From assembly GCF_000711225.1 (NCBI RefSeq), contig NZ_JOMG01000002.1:1562501-1626500 (forward strand): 64,000 nucleotides of DNA, given 5' to 3'. This DNA comes from Pelobacter seleniigenes DSM 18267 (GTDB lineage: Bacteria > Desulfobacterota > Desulfuromonadia > Desulfuromonadales > Geopsychrobacteraceae). Of the stretch, positions 47,473 to 62,765 are shown in pieces; positions within the stretch are counted from its first letter, which is position 1, and each line of letters starts with the position of its first letter. Below the pieces are notes generated by a model. That model did not search any database, was not told the DNA's origin, and saw nothing but the letters and a program-made list of their open reading frames with translations. A program made the translations under genes and the position numbers.

Positions 47473-47757
47473 TCAGCACCCCCCTTTGATCCGCAGGGAG
47501 AATTTTTCTTCCAGCCACTCAGACAACAGCCCGGAGGCGCAGCCGACCCCGGAATCGACGCTGAGCACGGCGACCGGGCAGTTGCGGGCGCAGGCACCGC
47601 ATTCCATGCAGGCATCCAGATCGACAATTCTTGCCCGGCCGGATTCCAGGACCAGGACGGCATGGGGGCAGACTTCAACACAGCGGCCGCAGCCAATACA
47701 GTGCTCGGCATCCAGGCTCAGGGTGGCCACATTCTTGATATATCTGAAATTATCCAT
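47473..47757 (-). CDS. hgcB: HgcB, 4Fe-4S ferredoxin required for mercury methylation
   Basis: This 94-residue ferredoxin has two cluster motifs, CIGCGRCVEVCP (from residue 20) and the HgcB-type CMECGACARNCP, followed by the conserved PVAVLSVDSGVGCASG and a C-terminal Cys. It is thought to pass electrons to the HgcA corrinoid and handle Hg(II) through its C-terminal Cys. The gene starts 19 bp after hgcA with CAGGA upstream. The product ends Gly-Gly-Cys followed by UGA, where well-studied HgcB proteins have a vicinal Cys pair, so either one Cys suffices or the stop is recoded (see findings). Confidence 0.93.
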   Translation of the reverse strand: MDNFRYIKNVATLSLDAEHCIGCGRCVEVCPHAVLVLESGRARIVDLDACMECGACARNCPVAVLSVDSGVGCASGLLSEWLEEKFSLRIKGGC

Positions 47758-47776: not shown

Positions 47777-48865
47777 TTATGAAAAAAGTGCCCAGCCGCA
47801 GAGTAGGGCCGCGCAAAGCAGAGCGGCGAGCATGACGGGCAGGGCGATATTCATCTCTTTGCGCACCCCGGAGCGCGAGGTAAAGGGGGTGCTGCCGGTG
47901 AAATTCATGGCGTAAAAGGAGCTGATGCTGGTCAGGACGAGAACCGCTGCCGCAATCGCCGCCGGGCTGAACCCCGGCCACATGGCCCAGGCCCAGCAGG
48001 CGCTGCCGAGCAAACCGAGGAGCATCCCCTTAAAAGCGAAACTTGGCCCAGGCAGCCAGGGCAGGAGGATGGGGAGCAGAACCGTTCCGGTCAGGACCGC
48101 TCCGCAAAGTGCCGCAGCAGCAGCCAGGCCGAAGCTGGCCCCCCTGAACCACCATCCGACCAGGAATGTCACCACGCTTGCAGGCAGCGAGAATTGCAGC
48201 GAGTGAATCAGCTCGACCGGGATCAGCACCAGTCGCTGGCGCAGGGAGAAGATCAGTTTTCTCATCTCCGGAGTTGTGACCAGACCGTTATCCAGGTATT
48301 CGGGAAGGTCGGCAATATCAATGGCCGCATAGCGAATTCTAAAACCGGTTGCCCTGGTGACCTCGTGGGCAGCGATGCCCGGCGCGCCCAGGATCGGCAG
48401 GATGATAGATCGATTATCGATCAGTTCCTTGAGGGCGGTGGACTGAATGCGCCCGATCAGTTCCCTGGTTCCGAAGGAGCCCTTGCCCGCTGCACACCAG
48501 ACATTGATCCCGTAAGTTTCCAGAACCAGGATCCAGACATTCCTGCCCCTGAGGGTGCTGCGCACCAGGTCGTAACTCATTTTATAGTTTGCGGTAACCA
48601 CGACGGGAGCCAAAGTGTCGGGGTTTCCAACGGCGTATAAGCCCGGCGGGACAATGTAGGAATCCCGCCCGATCCCCCAACGGGCTTTCCAGCAGCCGAG
48701 GCGATCCCGCCAGCTGAGTTGGGATGAGATCCGGGGGACTTTGCCGACTGTTGTGGTCAGCCAGGATGTGAAGCCGGGGACCTGGTCATTGATTTCTCCG
48801 CCACCGGCGGAGTTCTCCGGGCCTCAGCAGGGGGGCTTGTCGATGTCGGTAACGGTTGTTTTCAA
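47777..48865 (-). CDS. hgcA: HgcA, corrinoid protein of mercury methylation, read through an in-frame UGA
   Basis: HgcA transfers a methyl group from its cobalamin to Hg(II). The family-defining cap-helix motif NVWCAAGKG is at residues 121-129, with the Co-coordinating Cys124. RDSYIVPPGLYAVGNPD and TANYKMSYD precede it, and about five membrane helices follow from residue ~230. The conserved sequence upstream of position 48613 has no ATG, GTG or TTG before a single in-frame UGA (48826-48824). Read as an amino acid, the UGA becomes residue 14 (PPC-U-GPEN) and the frame reaches the TTG at 48865, with GGAG nine bases upstream. The full product is 362 residues. A SECIS-like hairpin follows the UGA. 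If the UGA were a true stop the gene would be broken. Confidence 0.88.
48796..48826 (-). promoter_or_regulatory. Candidate bacterial SECIS element of hgcA
   Basis: On the minus strand the UGA (48826-48824) is followed after 11 nt by a perfect 7-bp stem CTCCGCC/GGCGGAG with the three-base loop GGU. The loop begins 19 nt after the UGA, which from memory equals the distance of the SelB-contacted GGU in E. coli fdhF. Confidence 0.6.
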
Positions 48866-48871
48866 GATTTT

Positions 48872-48916
48872 TTACTCCATTGGTTCCAGCTCGGTTGGCT
48901 CCGGATGATGCTTCAT
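48872..48916 (-). CDS. Possible 14-codon leader ORF ahead of hgcA
   Basis: An ATG at 48916 opens a 14-residue frame (MKHHPEPTELEPME) that ends with TAA at 48874-48872, overlapping the GGAG used by hgcA. Translation of it could couple ribosomes to the TTG start of hgcA. No strong ribosome-binding site precedes it, so it may be chance. Confidence 0.25.
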   Translation of the reverse strand: MKHHPEPTELEPME

Positions 48917-49080: not shown

Positions 49081-52000
49081 TTATTGCAGAACTCTGCTGA
49101 TGGTGGCGAGTAATGCTGACATTTCCAACGGCTTCAGGCAGAACGCATCAATTTCGAGGCGCTCGATGTCCTCTTCCGACACTTTGGAGCTGTAACCGGA
49201 ACAGAGAATGACCGGAAGATCCGGTTTGATGGCCTTGGCTTTGGCAATGAGTTCCGTGCCGGTCAATTCCGGCATGGTTTGATCGGTCAACAGCAGATCA
49301 AACTGTTCCGGGGTCTCCTTGAGTCTCTTCAGCCCGGCTGTGCTGCTGGTTTCGGTGGTCACCTGATAACCCACATCGGTCAACATCATGCTGATCATTT
49401 CTGTCAGCATCTGTTCATCATCGATGAGCAGGATATGTCCCGAGCCGGTTGGCAATTGCTGGTTATCGGTTTTTGGCTGTACGGAAGAGTTGGGTTCTGT
49501 CGTCAACGGAAACAGCAGCTCAAAAGAACTCCCCTGGTTCACTGTGCTCTGTAACCGGATCATACCGCGGCTTTTTTTGACAAATCCCTGGACAGTCGCC
49601 AGCCCCATACCGGTCCCCTGTTCCACGTCCTTGGTGGTGAAGAACGGGTCAAAGATTCTGTCAATGACTTGCGGCGCTATGCCGCAGCCGGTATCCGTGA
49701 TCTTGATGCTGATATAGGACCCTGGCTGGCAGGAGTATTGCGGCAGAAGGTCTTGCTCCTGCAGGTCGGCAGTCGCCAGGGCGATGGTCAGGTCGCCTTT
49801 TTCCTCCATGGCATGAACGGCGTTGGTGCAAAGATTGATCAGGGCTTCCTCAAGTTTGGTGGAATTGGCTTCGATGGTGGCCACGGCAGCGCTCGAAGCG
49901 ACTTGGTAGCATAGGTTGATGGTCGAAGGAAGGGTGGCTTTCAACAATTTGACTGTTTCTTCGATAACCATGTTCGGTTGGACCGACTCGATCTGTTCCG
50001 ATTCCTTGCGACTGTAGGCAAGGATCTGCCGTACCAGATCACGGGACCGGCGCACCGCAATCTGGGCATTGTGGAGAAAGGTTTTGACCTCTTCGTCGGC
50101 TGAGTTTTTTCTCTGTGCCAGCTCCAGGTTGCCAAGGATAATGGCCAGATTGTTGTTGAAATTATGGGCAATCCCGCCGGCCATAACGCCAACCGCTTCC
50201 ATTTTGTATTTCTGGCGAAGGTGATTCTCCAGGTTTTCTTTATCCTGCTGGGCCTTGTTGCGCTGGGTGATATCGCGCTCAATGGCGAGAATAAATTCCT
50301 GCTCATCGAGCTGCAGCGGACGCAGGGTGACTTCGACCGGGAAAATTTTGCCATCCTTACAGCGGTGGGAAACTTCGAAAGTGAGTGTTTCCCCGGGTTT
50401 CAGATTACGGATCGGGGCGTCCTCCGAGATCAGGTCCGCGCCGTCGACATCGAGCAGGTTGATGGATTTGCCAATGAGTTCGTGGCGTTCATAACCATGG
50501 TGGCGGCAGGCCGATTCGCTAAGATCGACAATGAACAAATCATCGTCTTGCCGCTGCAGAACCAGCGCATAGTCGGCAACATGTTCAAACAGAGTATGAA
50601 ATTTCTGTTTTTCAGCCTGAAGGATTGCTTCGGTCTGTCTGCGAACGGCGATTTCCCGCTGCAGTTCAGCGGTTTTTTGATTGACCTGTTTTTTCAGGGT
50701 TCTGCTCCAGAGAGAGATCACCAGCAGCAGGATAAAGACTGGAGTAACACCGTAAATTACGTATCTGATGGTCGTTTTAAAACTGTTCTCGGAGGAGTCG
50801 TAGGGAGCAAACCATTTGGAATAAAGTTGCCGGTATTGGCCGTTTTCTTTGAGAATATGGAGTCCTTCCGAGAAATCGGCGAGGAGAGCTCCGTTGCCAT
50901 GCAGGGTGGCGTAGCTGTATTCGGGGGAAAGAATCGATTTCTGCCCGACCAGCAGATTGTCCCAGTGGTGTTTTCTGATCCAATAAAATGCCGGGATTCG
51001 GGCGACTAAAGCACAGTCTGCCTGCCCATCGGCAAGGCGACGGAGGGCTTCTTCCTGGGTAGAGACGGTGATCAATTCCTTGGCCAGTCCCATTTTTACG
51101 GCCAGGTCGTGGAGGATGTCCCCCTCCATGACCAGAATGGATTTTCCGCTCAGTTGGCCGAGATTGGCAAAGGGCAGATCCCCTTTCCTGGTGATGATGG
51201 CATGGCCAACAACGGAGTGGGGTGGTGAAAAATCCACCACTTTATCCCGTTCGGGAGAATAGAACATTCCCTCAATAATATCGATGTTGCCGTTGGAGAG
51301 CCCCTGCCGAATGTTGTTCCAGGAGTCAAGTTCGATACTGATATCGAGATTCAACTGTTTGGCGATCGCCCGGGTCAGGTCGACGTTGAACCCGGCGGGC
51401 TGGCCGTTTTCATCCAGGTACTCATAGGGCGGGTACTGTTTGTCGCCACCGACGATGATGCGGCTTTTGGGCCTGACCAGCGGGGCGAACCATTTTTCGT
51501 GCAGCTTCTGAAAAGTGCCGTCGGCAATGACAATGGAAAGGCCTTCGTTGAGTATGCTTAACAGCTGCCGCTGACCTTTGGGGACGGCAAAGCAGAAGGA
51601 TTGCACGAATTGCTCAAGGGGGGGACCGACCGCCTGGAGGTTTTTGAGGCTGTACTGTTGAAGCAGCTGGAAAGCCAGCAGTTTCTGGATGACGACCGCA
51701 TCATAATGTCCCTGTGACAAATCCAGCAATGCCGTCGCAAAAGAGTCGGTCGGGACGATAGTCGCACCCAGGTTGCTGTGGCGCAGAAATTCTTCCGCGC
51801 TGTCACCACGTAACACTGCGACCTGTTTGCCACGGAGGTCGCTAAGGGAGTTGATCTCTTTATTGTCGGTCCGGGCGATGATGGTGCCGTGCATATGGAG
51901 GTAGGGGAAGGTGAAATCGAACAATTTTTCCCGCTCCGGCGTTCGCCCAACCAGCGGGAGAACTTGAATTTGCTTGTCAATCAGCTGCTGTTTGATCTTG

Positions 52001-52239
52001 GCCCAGGAGCCGGTGGTAAAGGTCACCTCATAGCCCATGGCCTGCAGCGTCGCTTTGAGCAGTTCGACCGAGAACCCGGTAGGTTGATTATTTTCATCGA
52101 TCAGGCTGAACGGGGGATAATCAAATTCGGCGGCGGAAAGGATAGGAGATCGGTCGGTTGGCTGAGTTTGGGCAAAGAGGCCGGAGACCCAGAATAAGCA
52201 GAAAAAGACCGTTAAAATAAAAGCGCGTCTTGGCTTCAT
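49081..52239 (-). CDS. Hybrid sensor histidine kinase with two periplasmic solute-binding domains
   Basis: This 1052-residue membrane sensor begins with a signal peptide (to about residue 24). Two tandem SBP_bac_3 domains follow (~30-255 and ~265-485), then a membrane helix near 500-520 and a PAS domain (~545-665). The kinase core has the phospho-acceptor His692 in GIAHNFNNNLAIILGN and ATP-binding boxes DTGCGIAP and GTGMGLATV. It ends with a receiver domain with Asp986 in LLTDQTMPELTG. The double periplasmic module resembles BvgS/EvgS. It probably senses an amino-acid-like ligand; no partner response regulator is encoded nearby. Confidence 0.93.
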   Translation of the reverse strand: MKPRRAFILTVFFCLFWVSGLFAQTQPTDRSPILSAAEFDYPPFSLIDENNQPTGFSVELLKATLQAMGYEVTFTTGSWAKIKQQLIDKQIQVLPLVGRTPEREKLFDFTFPYLHMHGTIIARTDNKEINSLSDLRGKQVAVLRGDSAEEFLRHSNLGATIVPTDSFATALLDLSQGHYDAVVIQKLLAFQLLQQYSLKNLQAVGPPLEQFVQSFCFAVPKGQRQLLSILNEGLSIVIADGTFQKLHEKWFAPLVRPKSRIIVGGDKQYPPYEYLDENGQPAGFNVDLTRAIAKQLNLDISIELDSWNNIRQGLSNGNIDIIEGMFYSPERDKVVDFSPPHSVVGHAIITRKGDLPFANLGQLSGKSILVMEGDILHDLAVKMGLAKELITVSTQEEALRRLADGQADCALVARIPAFYWIRKHHWDNLLVGQKSILSPEYSYATLHGNGALLADFSEGLHILKENGQYRQLYSKWFAPYDSSENSFKTTIRYVIYGVTPVFILLLVISLWSRTLKKQVNQKTAELQREIAVRRQTEAILQAEKQKFHTLFEHVADYALVLQRQDDDLFIVDLSESACRHHGYERHELIGKSINLLDVDGADLISEDAPIRNLKPGETLTFEVSHRCKDGKIFPVEVTLRPLQLDEQEFILAIERDITQRNKAQQDKENLENHLRQKYKMEAVGVMAGGIAHNFNNNLAIILGNLELAQRKNSADEEVKTFLHNAQIAVRRSRDLVRQILAYSRKESEQIESVQPNMVIEETVKLLKATLPSTINLCYQVASSAAVATIEANSTKLEEALINLCTNAVHAMEEKGDLTIALATADLQEQDLLPQYSCQPGSYISIKITDTGCGIAPQVIDRIFDPFFTTKDVEQGTGMGLATVQGFVKKSRGMIRLQSTVNQGSSFELLFPLTTEPNSSVQPKTDNQQLPTGSGHILLIDDEQMLTEMISMMLTDVGYQVTTETSSTAGLKRLKETPEQFDLLLTDQTMPELTGTELIAKAKAIKPDLPVILCSGYSSKVSEEDIERLEIDAFCLKPLEMSALLATISRVLQ

Positions 52240-56620: not shown

Positions 56621-58213
56621 TCAATCGCTGACGACAACCCCGCGCCGCTCCAGCAGGCTCCCTTCGGCAAGATACAGATTGACCAGGGCAATGCGATAGC
56701 TGACCACCGCATCGATTTCGGCAATCTGGGTCTGCAGCAGGTCACGCTGGGCCTGGGCTACCAGCAGCGCAGTGCTGATACCGACCTCAAAGCGTTCCCG
56801 CTCGGCCGCCAGGGTCTGTTCCTGGAAAATCCGGGTGGTGTGGCTGGCAGCGATTTGTTGGCGGGTGCGTTCGACTTCGTTGGCGGCCAGACGCACATCC
56901 AACTGCACCAGTTGGCTGAGATTGGTCACGGCGGCAAGAGCCTGTTGCCGGGAGCTTTGGGCGGCCAGGTTACGGGCTTTGGCGGCACGGTTACCGAGCA
57001 GATAGCTAAGCTGCAGGCCGCTGGTCAAATCATAGGTGTTGCCGTCAAGATCGCGAAAAGCGGCGGAAAAGTTCTCCGCATAACCTGTTTTACCCAGGGC
57101 GATGAAAAAATCCAGGCGCGGCAGCAGGCCGTTACGGGTGACCAGGGTTTCCAGGCGATTTTGCTGCAGCCGCAGGCGCGCTTCATTGAGATCGGCGCGC
57201 AGCCGTTGCGCCAGGGCCAGGCGGTCGTCCAGATCGGTCAGCGGCTGGGCAGAGATGCGTGGATTACTGGTGGTTTCGATGGGCTGGTCATGATCATTCT
57301 CAAGCGAAGGGGTGAGCAGGCGCAGCAGGCGCAGCCGCCGTTCTTCAAGCAGACTGCGGGCATCGAGGAGCGCCTGAATGCGCAAGGCTTCTTCCGCTTG
57401 GGCGGCCGCAACTTCAATTTTAGGCAAGGTGCCGACCTCGATACGGGCCTCGATATCTTCCCGCTGCTGTCTGGCCACGGCCAGGGACGCTTCGAAAATG
57501 GCGATCTCCTCCCGGGCGAGGACATAATTCCAGTAAGCGATTTCTGTATCGGCCAGCAGGGTTTCGCTGAAGCCGCGTAGTTCATCCAGGCTGATCCGGG
57601 TCTCCAGTTCCGCCTGGCGGATGGACGCCAGGTTGACGGCAGGTCCCCGGCCGCGCAGCAGGGACTGGGTGATGCTCAGTTCCAGCCGGGCGGTCTGCTG
57701 TTCGGGTTCGCGATTGGAAATGGTCCGCTCATGGCTGACCGTTCCTTCAACAACCGTTCCCGTGGGCAACTCCTGGCGCAGCCCGGCGCTCGAGATGGTA
57801 TCATCGCCCACGACATTGTACAGCTCGCCGCTGGAGCGGGAGGTTTCAGTGGCTTTTTCTTTATAGTATTCGAATTTGGCAAAAAGTTCCGGATCGTACC
57901 TGCCGCGTTCGATCTGGGCGAAGGTTCCGCTGATAACCGGACCAAAGCGGCGTACCTGCAGGTCAGTGTTGTTATGCAGGGCCAGCAATACCGCCTGCTC
58001 CACGGACAGCGTTGCCAGGTTGGCCGGCTCGGGGGATGTTTTTGGGGCAGAGGGTGGTTCAGTCAACACGGCAGAGAGGCTGTCCAGGGCTGCTGGCGGT
58101 GCGGCGACCGGTTCGCTGGTAAAAGGCGGCCAGCGGTCAACCGGGGTGCAGCCGGAGCTGAACAGCAACCAGACCAGGCCGCATAACAGGGCTGTCGATG
58201 ATCTAACTGTCAT
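56621..58213 (-). CDS. TolC-family outer-membrane efflux lipoprotein
   Basis: This 530-residue outer-membrane factor has a lipoprotein signal peptide (lipobox FSSGC, acylated Cys at ~22). Two OEP repeats rich in long helices follow ([17 protein letters not shown] and [16 protein letters not shown]). It would form the outer channel of the tripartite pump encoded upstream in the same operon; its start overlaps the RND gene by 4 bp. The substrate is probably a hydrophobic or amphiphilic toxic compound, as for HAE-type pumps. Confidence 0.9.
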
Positions 58214-61200
58214 GGTTTCGGCTCTTTGGGTTGAGGGTGGAAGAGGGAATAGACGACGGGAATCAGCACCAGGGTGATTAGGGTTGATCCGCTCAGGCCA
58301 CCGATCACCACCCGGGCCAGTGGGGCCTGGGCATCCGCTCCTTCGCCGATCCCGAAGGCCAGCGGCATCAGGGCGAGGATGGTGGTCAGGGTGGTCATCA
58401 GGATCGGCCGCAGCCGGCGTCGTCCGGCCTCGGCGACCGCGTCCTCCACCGGCATTCCCCAGCGCACCAGCTGACCGGCCTGGTCGACCAGCAGGATAGC
58501 GTTGTTGACCACGATTCCTCCCAACATGATACAGCCGATGAAGGATTGCAGGTTCAGGGTGGTCTGGGTCACAAACAGGATGGCCAGCACCCCGACGGCG
58601 GAAACTGGCACCGAGACCATAACCACCAGTGGGTCGCGCAATGACTCATACTGGCAGGCCAGGACCATGTAGACCAAGAGCAGTGCCAGGACCAGGGACA
58701 GAATCAGTTCGTCGAAGGCTTTCTGCTGTTCTTCGTAATTACCGGTCACCAGCAGATCGTAACCGACCGGGCGGGGGATCTCATCGATGGCTGCTTGCAC
58801 GTCGCCGGCCACCGAACCCAGATCGCGGTCGGTCACGTTGGCCTGGACGGTCACCAGCCGTTGCTGGTCCTTGCGATCGATCTGCACCGGACCGCGCGCC
58901 GCCTGATTGCTGACCATGTTGCGCAGGGCCACCTGGCTGCCGTCCGGGGTGGTCAGGGTCAGGTCGAGGATTTCGTCCAGAGAACGTTTTTCGGCGTCCT
59001 TGAGCTGGACAAAGATCCGGTAGGAATTCCCTTCAGCTCGGAACTCGCCAGCCTTGCTCCCGGCAATGGCGGTCTCCAGGATTTCGCTGACATCGCGAAT
59101 GCTCAGGCCGAGATCGGCAATTTTGTTACGGTCGATCTGGATGTTCTGCTGAGGAATCCCGGCGACCTGGCTGCTTTCGATGTCAGAGATACCAGTGATG
59201 CCAGCGAGCCGCTGCCTGACCTGGTTGGCCAGGGAATCGAGCACCTGCAGATCGAAACCGCGCACTTCGACACTCAACCCCGAATCGCCGCCGAGGATCC
59301 GTTCGAGGAGAAATTGCCCCTGGGGGGCCCTGGTGCGGATGGTCATGCCGGGAATTTTGCCGCTCAGGCGCTGCCGCAGATCCGCGGCGATGTCCTTATT
59401 GGAACGGGTTCTTTGCCCGGCCGGGGCCAGGGACATGCGGATTTCGGTTTTGGCGGCGTCGCTCGGCCGCCAGCCCGAGGAGCCGACATTGATCACCGTG
59501 GAAATCGCCTCGGGGACGCTGCCGTAAACCAGCTGCTCCATTTTTCGAGCCTGGCGGTCCAACAATTCCAGGGTGGTGCCGATTTCCATTTCCCCAGTCA
59601 CCCGAACTTCCCCCTCATCGCTTGGTGGCAAAAATTCGCTGCCGATAAAGGGCAACAGCAGCAGGCTGGCGCCGAGCAGAGACAGGGCCAGGAGCACGGT
59701 CGCCAGGCGCTGGCGTAAAATGCGTTTGAGCAGGTTGCGGTAGCCGTTATCCAGTCCTTTGAGCAGTTCGCCCGACCAGTCGATGAGGCGCATGATACCG
59801 GGCGGACGTCTGGCTTCCAGCTGGGCTTCGGTTTTGAGCAGGCGCGACGCCAGCATCGGCAGCAAACTCAGGGAAACCAGCAGGGAACAGACCAAGGCAA
59901 AGATGATGACGTAGGACAGCTCCTGAAAAAGGACCCCGGCTACGCCGCGCACAAATACCAGGGGGAGGAAAATTACCAGGGTGGTGATGGTGCTGGCAAT
60001 GATGGCCGGGCCGACTTCCCGCGCCCCTTCTACCGCTGCAAAATCCGGGTCTTCATGGTTTTCCTGCTGGCGGCGGAAGATATTTTCCAGCACCACCACC
60101 GAGCTGTCGACCATCATCCCCACCCCGAGAGCCAGACCGCCCAGGGTCATCAGATTAAGGGTGAACCCGCCGAAATAAATCAGGGCAAAGGTGGCAATAA
60201 CCGAAATCGGGATAGCCAGGGAGATGACCAGAGTCGAGCGAATGTTGCGCAGGAAAAAGAGCAGGACCAGGATTGCCAGACCACCGCCGTAGATGACCGA
60301 CTGGGCGACATTGGCGATGGAGCGTTCGATGAAATTACCCTGATTGATGACCGGGATAATGCGAATTTGCGGGAAAGCGCGGTTGACCGCATCGATCTCG
60401 CCAAGGATGGCCTTGGCGACCTCCACGGTATTGGCGTCAGCCTGTTTGCGCACGGCCACCCGCAGGCCACGCTGGCCATTCACCCTGACGATCCGCTGAA
60501 GTTTTTCATAAGTATCACTGACCCTGGCCAGCTGTCCCAGAGTAACGGCAGCGCCGTCGCGACGGAAAATGACCGTATTGCGGAGCTGATCCAGGGAGGT
60601 GAACTCGGCCGCGGCCCGCAAGGAGACTTCGTAACGGCCCTGTTCGATTTTGCCGGCCGGCAGATCGAGGTTGGCGTCGCGAATGGCCTGCAACACCTGA
60701 TCGAAGGGCAGGCTGAGGGCCTTGACCCGATCGGGGTCGAGCTCGACCCGGACTTCTCGTTTAAACTCTCCCCACAGATCGACCTGGGCGACACCGGGCA
60801 GGCGGGCAAAACGATAGCGGATTTGATCCTCGATCAACTGGGTCAGCTCAACCGGATCGAGATTGCTGGAAATGCCCATGATCACCACCGGAAAGCTGGC
60901 GACATCGAACTTGCTGACCCGGGGGCGGACAATGTCGTCCGGCAGTTCGTTGATTTCGTCTTCAAGCTTCGACTGGACATCAAGGGCGGCGGTATCGATA
61001 TCCGTACCCCAGACAAAGCTGACCCGGACCGTGCTGTTGCCTTCGGACGACTGGGAGGTCATGTCCTTGACTCCGGGCACGGTGGCGACGATCTCTTCGA
61101 TGATCTGAGTCACCAGCCGTTCCATGACTTCGGGGCTGGCTCCTTCATACTGGGTGCGGATGGTCAACGTCGGCAGTTCGATATCCGGGAGCAGGTCGGT

Positions 61201-61299
61201 TTTCAGGCGGCTGAGGGAGAAGGCCCCGATAATGACGATGATCAGGGTGACCATGGTGGTGAACACCGGTCTGCACACGCTGAATCCGGGAAGGTTCAT
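58210..61299 (-). CDS. RND efflux pump inner-membrane subunit (HAE-1-like)
   Basis: This 1029-residue, 12-helix transporter has two large periplasmic loops and the standard start [20 protein letters not shown]. In TM4, [23 protein letters not shown] keeps the first of the two proton-relay Asp residues, with Ser at the second, a variant common in this subfamily. It lies 18 bp downstream of the adaptor gene and overlaps the outer-membrane factor gene. The pump is powered by the proton gradient; drug versus metal specificity is not certain, but no heavy-metal motif is seen. Confidence 0.94.
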
Positions 61300-61317
61300 G
61301 AATCCCCCCTGCTCATC

Positions 61318-62511
61318 TTAGTGGTTGGCCGGAGCAGTGCTCTGCTCAGCCGGGATGGTAATGGCCGAACCGTCGCCCAGCAACTGCTGACCGAGGGTGA
61401 CGACGCGTCCACGCAAAGAAGAACCGACCAGTTCCACCCGTTCGGCGTTGCGGATGCCGACCTCGACCTCCTGCCAGGACACCGAGTGCCCATCGGCCGC
61501 AACCAGGAAGACCCCGGTTTGCCCGTCTCTGGTGGTCAGCGCCTGTTCCGGAACGATAACGGCTTCGCTCTGCCGGGCCAGCACCGCCGTGGCGCGGATG
61601 AACATACCGGGCTTAAGGCGTTGGCCGGGATTGTCAATAAGCAGTTCGACGCGGGCCTGACGAGTGGCTTCCTTGAAAACCGGGGCGATCCGCTCAATTT
61701 GGCCTGGAAAAACCTCGCCCGGGAAAGCGTCAGTGGTGAGCCGGACCGGGAGGCCGGGCTGGAGCAGGGCGTAATCGCGTTCGGCGACATAGATGACACC
61801 GATGATCGGATCAAGCTCGACGATGCGCAGCAGCGGTGCATTGGCCGCCACCATTTCGCCTTCATCGACAAACCGTTCGGCAACCACCCGGCGCTCCTCG
61901 CCGCCGCTCCAGTTGGCGGTGATGCGGGTATAACCGAGACGGATATTGGCTGTCTCCAGGGCTGCTTCAGCATGGGCGACCTGTGCTTCAGCGGCATTCA
62001 AACCGACCTGTTTGGCGAGCTGGTTGGCCTGCGCCGCATCGAACTGGGATTCCGAGGCCACCCCGCGCTGGCGCAAGGTCTTCATTCGTTCGAATTCGCG
62101 CGCGCCGATGGCCAGCGCGCTGCGGGCTTCTGCCAGATTGGCCCTGGCCACGGCCAGGTCGGCTTTGGCCTGGGAAACCGCCTGGATATATTCCCCGTTA
62201 TCCAGCTCCCCGACCGTTTGATTGCGCTGGACCGCATCGGCAATATTAGCGCTCAAGTGCACCACGCGGCCTGCCACTTTGGGCGCGACCACGAACTCGG
62301 CGCGAGGGGCTAGAGCTCCGCTGAAGGAGCGCTGCAGTTCGATGGGGCCGTGTTCGATCGCGGTTACTTCAACCGGCGCCGGCCGCTTCGCCCCAGCCTT
62401 GGCTCCCCCCGTCCTGCCTGCGGGATTGCGTAGCGCGACCTGCCAGACCAGGCCTGCTGCAGCGGCCCCCAGAATAATCAGCAAGACCATCTTGGCGGTG
62501 GTTATCTTCAT
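61318..62511 (-). CDS. RND efflux periplasmic adaptor subunit
   Basis: This ~397-residue membrane-fusion protein has an N-terminal anchor helix (KMVLLIILGAAAAGLVW) and the lipoyl/barrel-sandwich halves around residues 60-100 and 185-215, split by a helical hairpin rich in Ala/Glu. A beta-barrel segment (GVIYVAERDYALLQPGLPVRL) and a membrane-proximal domain follow. The start is uncertain: ATG at 62511 gives the cleanest N-terminus, while ATG 62532 or TTG 62550 would add 7-13 residues. It is the first gene of the efflux operon. Confidence 0.9.
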   Translation of the reverse strand: MKITTAKMVLLIILGAAAAGLVWQVALRNPAGRTGGAKAGAKRPAPVEVTAIEHGPIELQRSFSGALAPRAEFVVAPKVAGRVVHLSANIADAVQRNQTVGELDNGEYIQAVSQAKADLAVARANLAEARSALAIGAREFERMKTLRQRGVASESQFDAAQANQLAKQVGLNAAEAQVAHAEAALETANIRLGYTRITANWSGGEERRVVAERFVDEGEMVAANAPLLRIVELDPIIGVIYVAERDYALLQPGLPVRLTTDAFPGEVFPGQIERIAPVFKEATRQARVELLIDNPGQRLKPGMFIRATAVLARQSEAVIVPEQALTTRDGQTGVFLVAADGHSVSWQEVEVGIRNAERVELVGSSLRGRVVTLGQQLLGDGSAITIPAEQSTAPANH

Positions 62512-62765
62512 CGTTGTTGATCCGGATGTCATTGGGATATGAAGTGGCAACGCCTTATGAATCAGGGTGTTGCCTCGGTTATGACAGAATTCTTACCCGT
62601 CAGCTACACAAATCATAACAAGTTTATGCGGATAAATACCATGCCGAAGGTCTGGATTAGGAGTTTTCAGGCGTGCATATACCCCTGGGGCGAAGCCAGA
62701 CAAGCGTCTGAATCAAGAGGAGAGAGGCTGTCCGATGGGGTTCCCGGAGTAGCGCAAAGCCGGGC

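What the first reader, a model, noticed from the sequence alone, without database searches (positions are those of the whole stretch)
48613..48865. hgcA contains an in-frame UGA next to Cys: candidate selenocysteine HgcA
Seen directly: minus-strand translation from the TTG at 48865 reads MKTTVTDIDKPPC, UGA, GPENSAGGGEIND and runs unbroken into conserved HgcA sequence (RDSYIVPPGLYAVGNPD, NVWCAAGKG). Between the UGA and position 48613 there is no ATG, GTG or TTG, although recognisable HgcA sequence occupies that stretch, so initiation must lie upstream of the UGA. The TTG has GGAG nine bases before it. A Cys-UGA pair followed by Gly-Pro is a typical context for a redox-active selenocysteine, and Desulfobacterota are rich in selenoproteins (general knowledge). 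If real, an N-terminal Cys-Sec pair could bind or deliver Hg(II), because Hg has very high affinity for selenolates. I know of no described selenoprotein HgcA. Automatic annotation would cut the first 84 residues or call a pseudogene.
Basis: partly seen in the sequence, partly recalled or inferred. Interest (0 to 1): 0.95.

Follow-up and report, generated by a model that had tools for sequence, protein, structure and literature searches.

The report
Mercury-methylating HgcA is a selenoprotein
The mercury-methylation gene hgcA in this bacterium very probably reads an internal stop codon as the selenium amino acid selenocysteine, next to a cysteine in a flexible front arm of the protein, a trait already listed in print for the family, so that making methylmercury may here depend on selenium.

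Summary
On the minus strand hgcA starts at a TTG (48865), has UGA as codon 14 (48826-48824) and runs open to 47777; the next common start is at 48613. The UGA is almost certainly selenocysteine. Of the 109 best matches in a 277-genome class search, 95 have UGA and 14 Cys in this column. A bSECIS-like hairpin follows (48812-48796): 87 of 96 unique UGA genes pass published limits, against 0 of 15 Cys orthologues and about 10% of synonymous shuffles, with covariation. The genome has selA, selB, selC and a UGA-containing selD. Sec after Cys also appears in two other HgcA groups with different hairpins. Function is inferred: a flexible Cys-Sec arm that binds and hands over Hg(II) or methylmercury, making methylation selenium-dependent. 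Against: two near-complete UGA genomes show no selA, selB or selC over cut-off.

The parts
47777..48865 (-). hgcA, corrinoid protein of mercury methylation, with UGA as codon 14; 362 residues if read through
   Evidence: translation; NF040863 425.1 bits (cut-off 275); best solved-structure match is the HgcAB model 9a0b_A, then CFeSP chains
48824..48826 (-). UGA codon, read as selenocysteine, directly after Cys13
   Evidence: same column UGA in 95 and Cys in 14 of the 109 best matches
48796..48812 (-). bSECIS-like hairpin: 7-bp stem, GGU loop, 18 nt between UGA and loop, -11.5 kcal/mol
   Evidence: limits of the bSECIS model seen in a passage of PMC13188914
48863..48865 (-). TTG start codon of hgcA
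   Evidence: only ATG/GTG/TTG between the in-frame TAA 48874-48872 and the UGA; ATG in L023 at the aligned position
48875..48878 (-). GGAG, Shine-Dalgarno-like, nine bases before the TTG
   Evidence: read
48494..48496 (-). codon of Cys124 in NVWCAAGKG, likely counterpart of the cobalt-ligating Cys93 of ND132 HgcA
   Evidence: invariant column; role of Cys93 from PMC11588087 (passages); that Cys93 sits in this motif is recalled, the ND132 sequence was not aligned here
47473..47757 (-). hgcB, dicluster ferredoxin; GVGC has Cys, and the gene ends in one Cys followed by a UGA that looks like an ordinary stop
   Evidence: NF040864 121.7 bits (cut-off 99)

Best explanation
hgcA encodes a selenoprotein. 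SelB with Sec-tRNA reads UGA codon 14 as selenocysteine, guided by the hairpin whose loop lies 18 nt downstream, so HgcA begins with a short flexible arm carrying a Cys13-Sec14 pair ahead of the corrinoid domain. Shown by comparative evidence: column identity, hairpin, machinery, and hence recoding. Inferred: the vicinal thiolate-selenolate pair is a soft-metal ligand that captures Hg(II) or accepts CH3Hg+ and exchanges it with HgcB Cys73, the HgcB C-terminal Cys and the corrinoid centre; full-length HgcA, and with it methylation, then needs selenium. The confidence given is for the selenocysteine; I put the ligand role at about 0.5.
For: UGA in 95 and Cys in 14 of the 109 best matches of the class search, each read at the site. 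Sequence before the site is conserved: PPC directly before it in 99 of 108 UGA and 8 of 17 Cys entries, C before it in every entry (entries were picked by C[C/U]GP). Hairpin: 6.67 of 7 pairs on average in 96 unique UGA genes against 4.29 (highest 4.60) in 300 synonymous-shuffle sets; 3.80 against 3.60 in 15 unique Cys genes. Published bSECIS limits met by 87 of 96 UGA genes, 0 of 15 Cys orthologues, 10% of shuffles on average. Covariation on 43 genes: 4 of 7 pairs with double changes (3 of 500 shuffles as many), 11 such cells (0 of 500). Own genome: tRNA-Sec 70.2 bits and ARAGORN tRNA-SeC, SelA 592.4, SelB 351.9, SelD 369.6 bits with its own UGA. SelB over cut-off in 62 of the 66 UGA genomes tested. 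A CU pair also in two other HgcA groups with different hairpins. In the AlphaFold model residues 1-11 have pLDDT under 50 and residues 11-20 average 50, as expected for a flexible arm. For the role: PMC7305189 discusses Cys pairs in Hg trafficking and a flexible Cys tail of HgcB (passages).
Against: No protein or 75Se data. Two UGA genomes of 99% estimated completeness, G227 and G216, show no SelB, SelA or tRNA-Sec over cut-off: machinery missing from the bin, or HgcA in decay there. Nine of 96 UGA genes miss the hairpin energy limit. A cruder folding test over 42 nt was weak (17% of 96 UGA genes at p<0.05, 7% of 15 Cys genes); the signal shows when the hairpin is tested as such. SelB is also present in 10 of 14 Cys genomes, so machinery alone does not predict the UGA. 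Twelve of 122 HgcAs have neither a CC nor a Cys-UGA pair in the stretch before the core, so the pair is not needed for every HgcA; its Hg role is untested.
Confidence: 0.9

Rival explanations
1. The UGA is a real stop (point mutation or sequencing error) and hgcA is truncated or a pseudogene, translated if at all from 48613.
For: A plain ORF call starts at 48613; no protein data.
Against: The same UGA in 95 of the 109 best matches, conserved sequence on both sides, a covarying hairpin that 0 of 15 Cys orthologues have within the limits, an otherwise intact 362-residue frame and hgcB.
Confidence: 0.02
2. The UGA is a conserved translational switch: the short leader ends at the UGA in most rounds, and HgcA is made from a downstream non-standard start; Sec is not the point.
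For: The UGA lies only 13 codons into the gene; in-frame CTG codons follow.
Against: The column is Cys, not a stop, in 14 of the 109 best matches, where the arm is open; the hairpin fits bSECIS limits in 87 of 96 UGA genes and 0 of 15 Cys genes.
Confidence: 0.04
3. Sec in the arm works in redox (keeping HgcA thiols or the corrinoid active), not as an Hg ligand.
For: Cys-Sec pairs are common redox centres (general knowledge); corrinoid enzymes need reduction (general knowledge).
Against: HgcB clusters are described as the electron source (PMC11588087, passages); repeated CC motifs in other HgcA arms look more like metal ligands than a single redox pair. None of this is a test.
Confidence: 0.3
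4. UGA is reassigned (Trp or another residue) in this genome.
For: None found.
Against: hgcB ends at UGA and relatives show no conserved sequence beyond that stop; selB and tRNA-Sec present; the relatives without UGA have Cys, not Trp, in the column.
Confidence: 0.01

Closest known systems
Selenoprotein HgcA as listed in the table of PMC13188914 (NF040863, motif CU, example WP_250697417.1), credited there to its refs 61 and 63 (63 = Haft & Gwadz 2023, J Bacteriol, not held)
   Same: HgcA with a CU motif, Sec directly after Cys
   Different: Which HgcAs were covered, and whether hairpin variants or Sec/Cys exchange were described, could not be read; the window gene may be one of theirs. The 2008 paper that stands before ref 62 in the reference list (PMC2398784) holds none of the terms acetyl-CoA, corrinoid or CODH in its main text
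HgcA of Pseudodesulfovibrio mercurii ND132
   Same: Corrinoid domain plus membrane domain (ND132 facts from passages of PMC7305189 and PMC11588087)
   Different: No selenium is mentioned for it in the passages seen; its corrinoid domain is given as residues 15-166; its own N-terminus was not compared here
Selenoprotein HgcB (GVGU; table of PMC13188914)
   Same: Partner protein, Sec in place of a conserved Cys
   Different: Here HgcB has Cys at that place, as in the 119 of 122 loci in which hgcB was found
Other CU selenoproteins of the same table (SaoC, SaoL, MbdU)
   Same: A Cys-Sec pair in proteins named for organometals or metals
   Different: No homology was tested here

Membership tests
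HgcA (NF040863) | Score over the curated cut-off | tested here: met
   425.1 bits, cut-off 275
HgcA (NF040863) | hgcB next to it | tested here: met
   NF040864 121.7 bits, cut-off 99, directly downstream
HgcA (NF040863) | Corrinoid domain with NVWC cysteine plus C-terminal membrane helices | tested here: met
   alignment; AlphaFold pTM 0.81 with five long C-terminal helices; HgcAB model 9a0b_A E 6.1e-20, then CFeSP chains; PF03599 36.8 bits, cut-off 24.8
HgcA (NF040863) | Methylates mercury | not testable with these tools
   needs an assay
Bacterial selenoprotein gene | Homologues with Cys at the UGA column | tested here: met
   14 of the 109 best matches, the other 95 UGA
Bacterial selenoprotein gene | bSECIS: loop 3-9 nt, upper stem 4-16 bp, G in the first two loop positions, 16-37 nt from UGA, at most -7.5 kcal/mol | tested here: met
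   window: GGU, 7 bp, 18 nt, -11.5 for the stem-loop alone; limits from a passage of PMC13188914
Bacterial selenoprotein gene | selA, selB, selC, selD in the genome | tested here: met
Bacterial selenoprotein gene | Selenium found in the protein | not testable with these tools
   needs 75Se or mass spectrometry

The most novel reading that the evidence does not exclude
Methylmercury production in many Desulfuromonadia, and in further Desulfobacterota, is gated by selenium: HgcA cannot be completed without Sec. The Cys-Sec pair has been gained or lost many times (at least 10 changes on the quick tree, 5 forced by well-supported branches), and three unlike SECIS hairpins serve it, which suggests repeated selection for a selenolate in the mercury-handling arm of HgcA.
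Probability: 0.4. Interest if true: 0.8.

Novelty: new member of a known kind. Interest (0 to 1): 0.5.

Why it matters
Methylmercury is a major environmental neurotoxin, and hgcA is the marker gene for its makers. If the HgcAs of this clade (95 of 109 best matches with UGA) need selenocysteine, selenium supply should control HgcA synthesis and perhaps its chemistry; a plain ORF call cuts the arm off, and gene models or constructs that begin after the UGA would miss the part that may touch mercury. Whether Haft & Gwadz 2023 gives some of this could not be checked.

Tried and rejected
Second Sec in HgcB: the window hgcB ends KGGC-UGA, where ND132 has two C-terminal Cys. Rejected: sequence past the UGA is not conserved, single-Cys ends also carry TAG (L026) and TAA (L046), and UGA is the commonest hgcB stop (76 of 119). 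Not excluded by experiment.

Trade-off between HgcA arm and HgcB tail cysteines: mean Cys after GVGC 2.49 (59 Sec), 3.50 (48 Cys), 3.83 (12 other); it follows lineage (the 8 Cys orthologues of the CCGP clade with hgcB in view also have 2), so no claim.

Free-energy z-scores over 42 nt: weak; replaced by tests of the hairpin itself. The stem was chosen by looking at the UGA genes, so the Cys orthologues, the synonymous shuffles and the published limits are the controls that count. In one search I applied the -7.5 limit to an unbroken stem-loop alone, which may be stricter than the published use.

SelB as predictor of UGA: 62 of 66 against 10 of 14 (Fisher p 0.03), suggestive only, as the genomes are related. 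One search was given 80 of the 108 genomes (all 14 Cys genomes, 66 of 94 UGA genomes), with E at most 1e-60.

Phylum-wide count with NF040863 (395 genomes, 114 over the cut-off): not used, because the model begins after the arm and cannot tell Sec from Cys.

Rows left out or limited: the 109 are the rows at 350 bits or more; lower rows, among them G052 and G185 with one TGA and an unlisted remainder, are not in the count. L069 is cut before the site; L048 and L129 have CCGP elsewhere in the arm and were not counted as orthologues; L175 and L227 were missed by the script and read (both UGA), so they are not in the hairpin counts. L112 has a UGA in the arm but not after Cys and is labelled 'other'. 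Sec/Cys labels come from text patterns in the last 95 residues before the core, so a wrong start could mislabel a row.

Full report
What is there. The minus strand carries hgcA and hgcB (NF040863 425.1 bits, cut-off 275; NF040864 121.7 bits, cut-off 99). hgcA opens at a TTG (48865), nine bases after GGAG and just after an in-frame TAA, has UGA as codon 14 (48826-48824) and is then open to 47777. The next ATG, GTG or TTG in frame is at 48613.

Column identity. A search of 277 genomes of the class (162 with a match) gave 109 rows of 350 bits or more, from 108 genomes; 95 have one TGA inside and 14 none (recounted). I fetched the site for each of these genomes: the UGA rows have TGA in the window's column, the 14 others TGC or TGT. 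Cys stands directly before the site in all 125 entries, preceded by PP in 99 of 108 UGA and 8 of 17 Cys entries. So translation passes through the site in the Cys genes, and the sequence before it is held in the UGA genes as well.

Hairpin. The stem of positions 12-18 with 22-28 after the UGA has 6.67 of 7 pairs on average in 96 unique UGA genes; 300 sets of synonymous shuffles gave 4.29 on average and 4.60 at most. In 15 unique Cys genes it has 3.80, shuffles 3.60. On 43 aligned UGA genes 97.0% of cells are paired, 4 of 7 pairs have double changes, and the covariation score is 0.232 against 0.153 in shuffles (0 of 500 as high) and at most 0.119 when the partner is slid; RNAalifold finds six of these seven pairs on its own. 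The bSECIS limits printed in PMC13188914 (passage seen) are met by 87 of 96 UGA genes, 0 of 15 Cys orthologues and 10% of shuffles on average. For the window: GGU loop, 7 bp, 18 nt, -11.5 kcal/mol. An earlier, cruder folding test was weak.

Machinery. The own genome has tRNA-Sec (70.2 bits; ARAGORN) and a selA-selB-selD run on one contig; SelD itself has a UGA in SSG-UGA-AAKIG followed by a stem of GCUCAG with CUGAGC. Among 80 of the 108 genomes, SelB passes its cut-off in 62 of 66 with UGA and 10 of 14 with Cys. Of the four UGA genomes without SelB, G083 and G157 have tRNA-Sec over cut-off, and G157 has SelA; G227 and G216, both 99% complete, have none of the three over cut-off. That is the main result against the reading, and I cannot say whether the genes are missing from the bins or lost.

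Beyond the window's clade. In 122 HgcA cores (named and unnamed loci, duplicates removed) 59 have a UGA directly after Cys in the arm, 51 a Cys pair and 12 neither, by text pattern. The quick tree needs at least 10 changes between Sec and the rest, 5 forced by well-supported branches; shuffled labels need 41 on average. The 59 are 43 with CUGP (the window's clade and L077), four with CUPPKAPPGA from genomes of the window's order (L036, L041, L046, L047), and twelve with CUP or CUA from records titled Deltaproteobacteria, Desulfobacterales and the like. The last two groups have hairpins of their own: GCGCCGC stem with CGGGT or CGGGA loop in the four, mostly a GGCUC stem with an AGGU-like loop in the twelve. 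Of these 16, 11 pass the limits against 7% of shuffles on average; 3 of 40 other CC genes pass. The tree is not rooted, so gain and loss cannot be told apart.

How it likely works. The AlphaFold model (mean pLDDT 88.2) is confident over most of the corrinoid and membrane domains; residues 1-11 are under 50 and 11-20 average 50. Its best solved-structure match is the HgcAB model 9a0b_A, then CFeSP chains. So Cys13-Sec14 probably sits on a flexible arm before the corrinoid domain. PMC7305189 (passages) proposes that the flexible C-terminal Cys of HgcB carry Hg(II) or CH3Hg+ and reports that one of the two is enough; the window's HgcB has one. I infer that the HgcA arm is a second such carrier, and that selenium raises its affinity or exchange rate for mercury. 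The pair is not universal (12 of 122 lack it), so it is an aid, not the catalyst. A redox role is the main rival. None of this was tested.

What is known. Selenoprotein HgcA is in print as a prediction: PMC13188914 lists it with motif CU, and HgcB with GVGU, citing among others Haft & Gwadz 2023, whose title names methylmercury biosynthesis (passages seen); PMC11588087 says that some hgcA and hgcB homologues may be selenoproteins (passage). The 2023 paper is not held, so I cannot say which of the points above it makes. Searches of the held library for selenocysteine or selenoprotein with HgcA, and for selenium with mercury methylation, listed no other paper that by title and abstract deals with this; of the listed papers I opened only PMC13188914, PMC11588087, PMC7305189 and PMC12013277 (plus PMC2398784 by its id), and of those saw passages.

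Verdict. Very probably a real selenoprotein HgcA; a new member of a known, predicted kind. I saw no laboratory test of the selenocysteine in the passages and listings above.

Noticed in passing
window 47473-47757: hgcB ends in a single Cys directly followed by UGA, where ND132 has two C-terminal Cys; checked and judged an ordinary stop.
   Followed up: yes
L052 (G000:C1:130000-142000): selA-selB-selD run; selD is itself a UGA gene (SSG-UGA-AAKIG) with a GCUCAG/CUGAGC stem that recalls the GGCUC stems of the second HgcA kind.
   Followed up: partly
L036, L041, L046, L047 (arms): A second Sec site kind, CUPPKAPPGA, in HgcAs of the window's order, on the tree among arms with repeated CC motifs; the conserved peptide coincides with the hairpin.
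   Followed up: partly
L035, L037-L040, L042-L045, L048-L051 (HgcA arms): Arms with several CC motifs, often CCPP, before the core, as in a repeated metal-binding tail.
   Followed up: no
G216 and G227 (L159, L139): UGA-hgcA with a full (L159, -11.5) or slightly weak (L139, -7.3) hairpin in 99% complete genomes without SelA, SelB or tRNA-Sec over cut-off.
   Followed up: partly
L059, L056: Geobacter-type HgcA in records titled Nitrospirae GWC2_56_14 (UGA) and Syntrophobacteraceae (Cys): gene transfer or wrong binning.
   Followed up: no
window 49081-52239: Hybrid sensor kinase with SBP_bac_3, PAS and receiver domains, next upstream of hgcA on the same strand.
   Followed up: no
window 56621-62550: RND efflux set (OEP, AcrB-type pump, CusB/HlyD-like adaptor) on the hgcA strand.
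   Followed up: no
L112 arm: UGA in an HgcA arm not next to Cys (PLT-UGA-ATSC); could be a further Sec site or lie before the true start.
   Followed up: no
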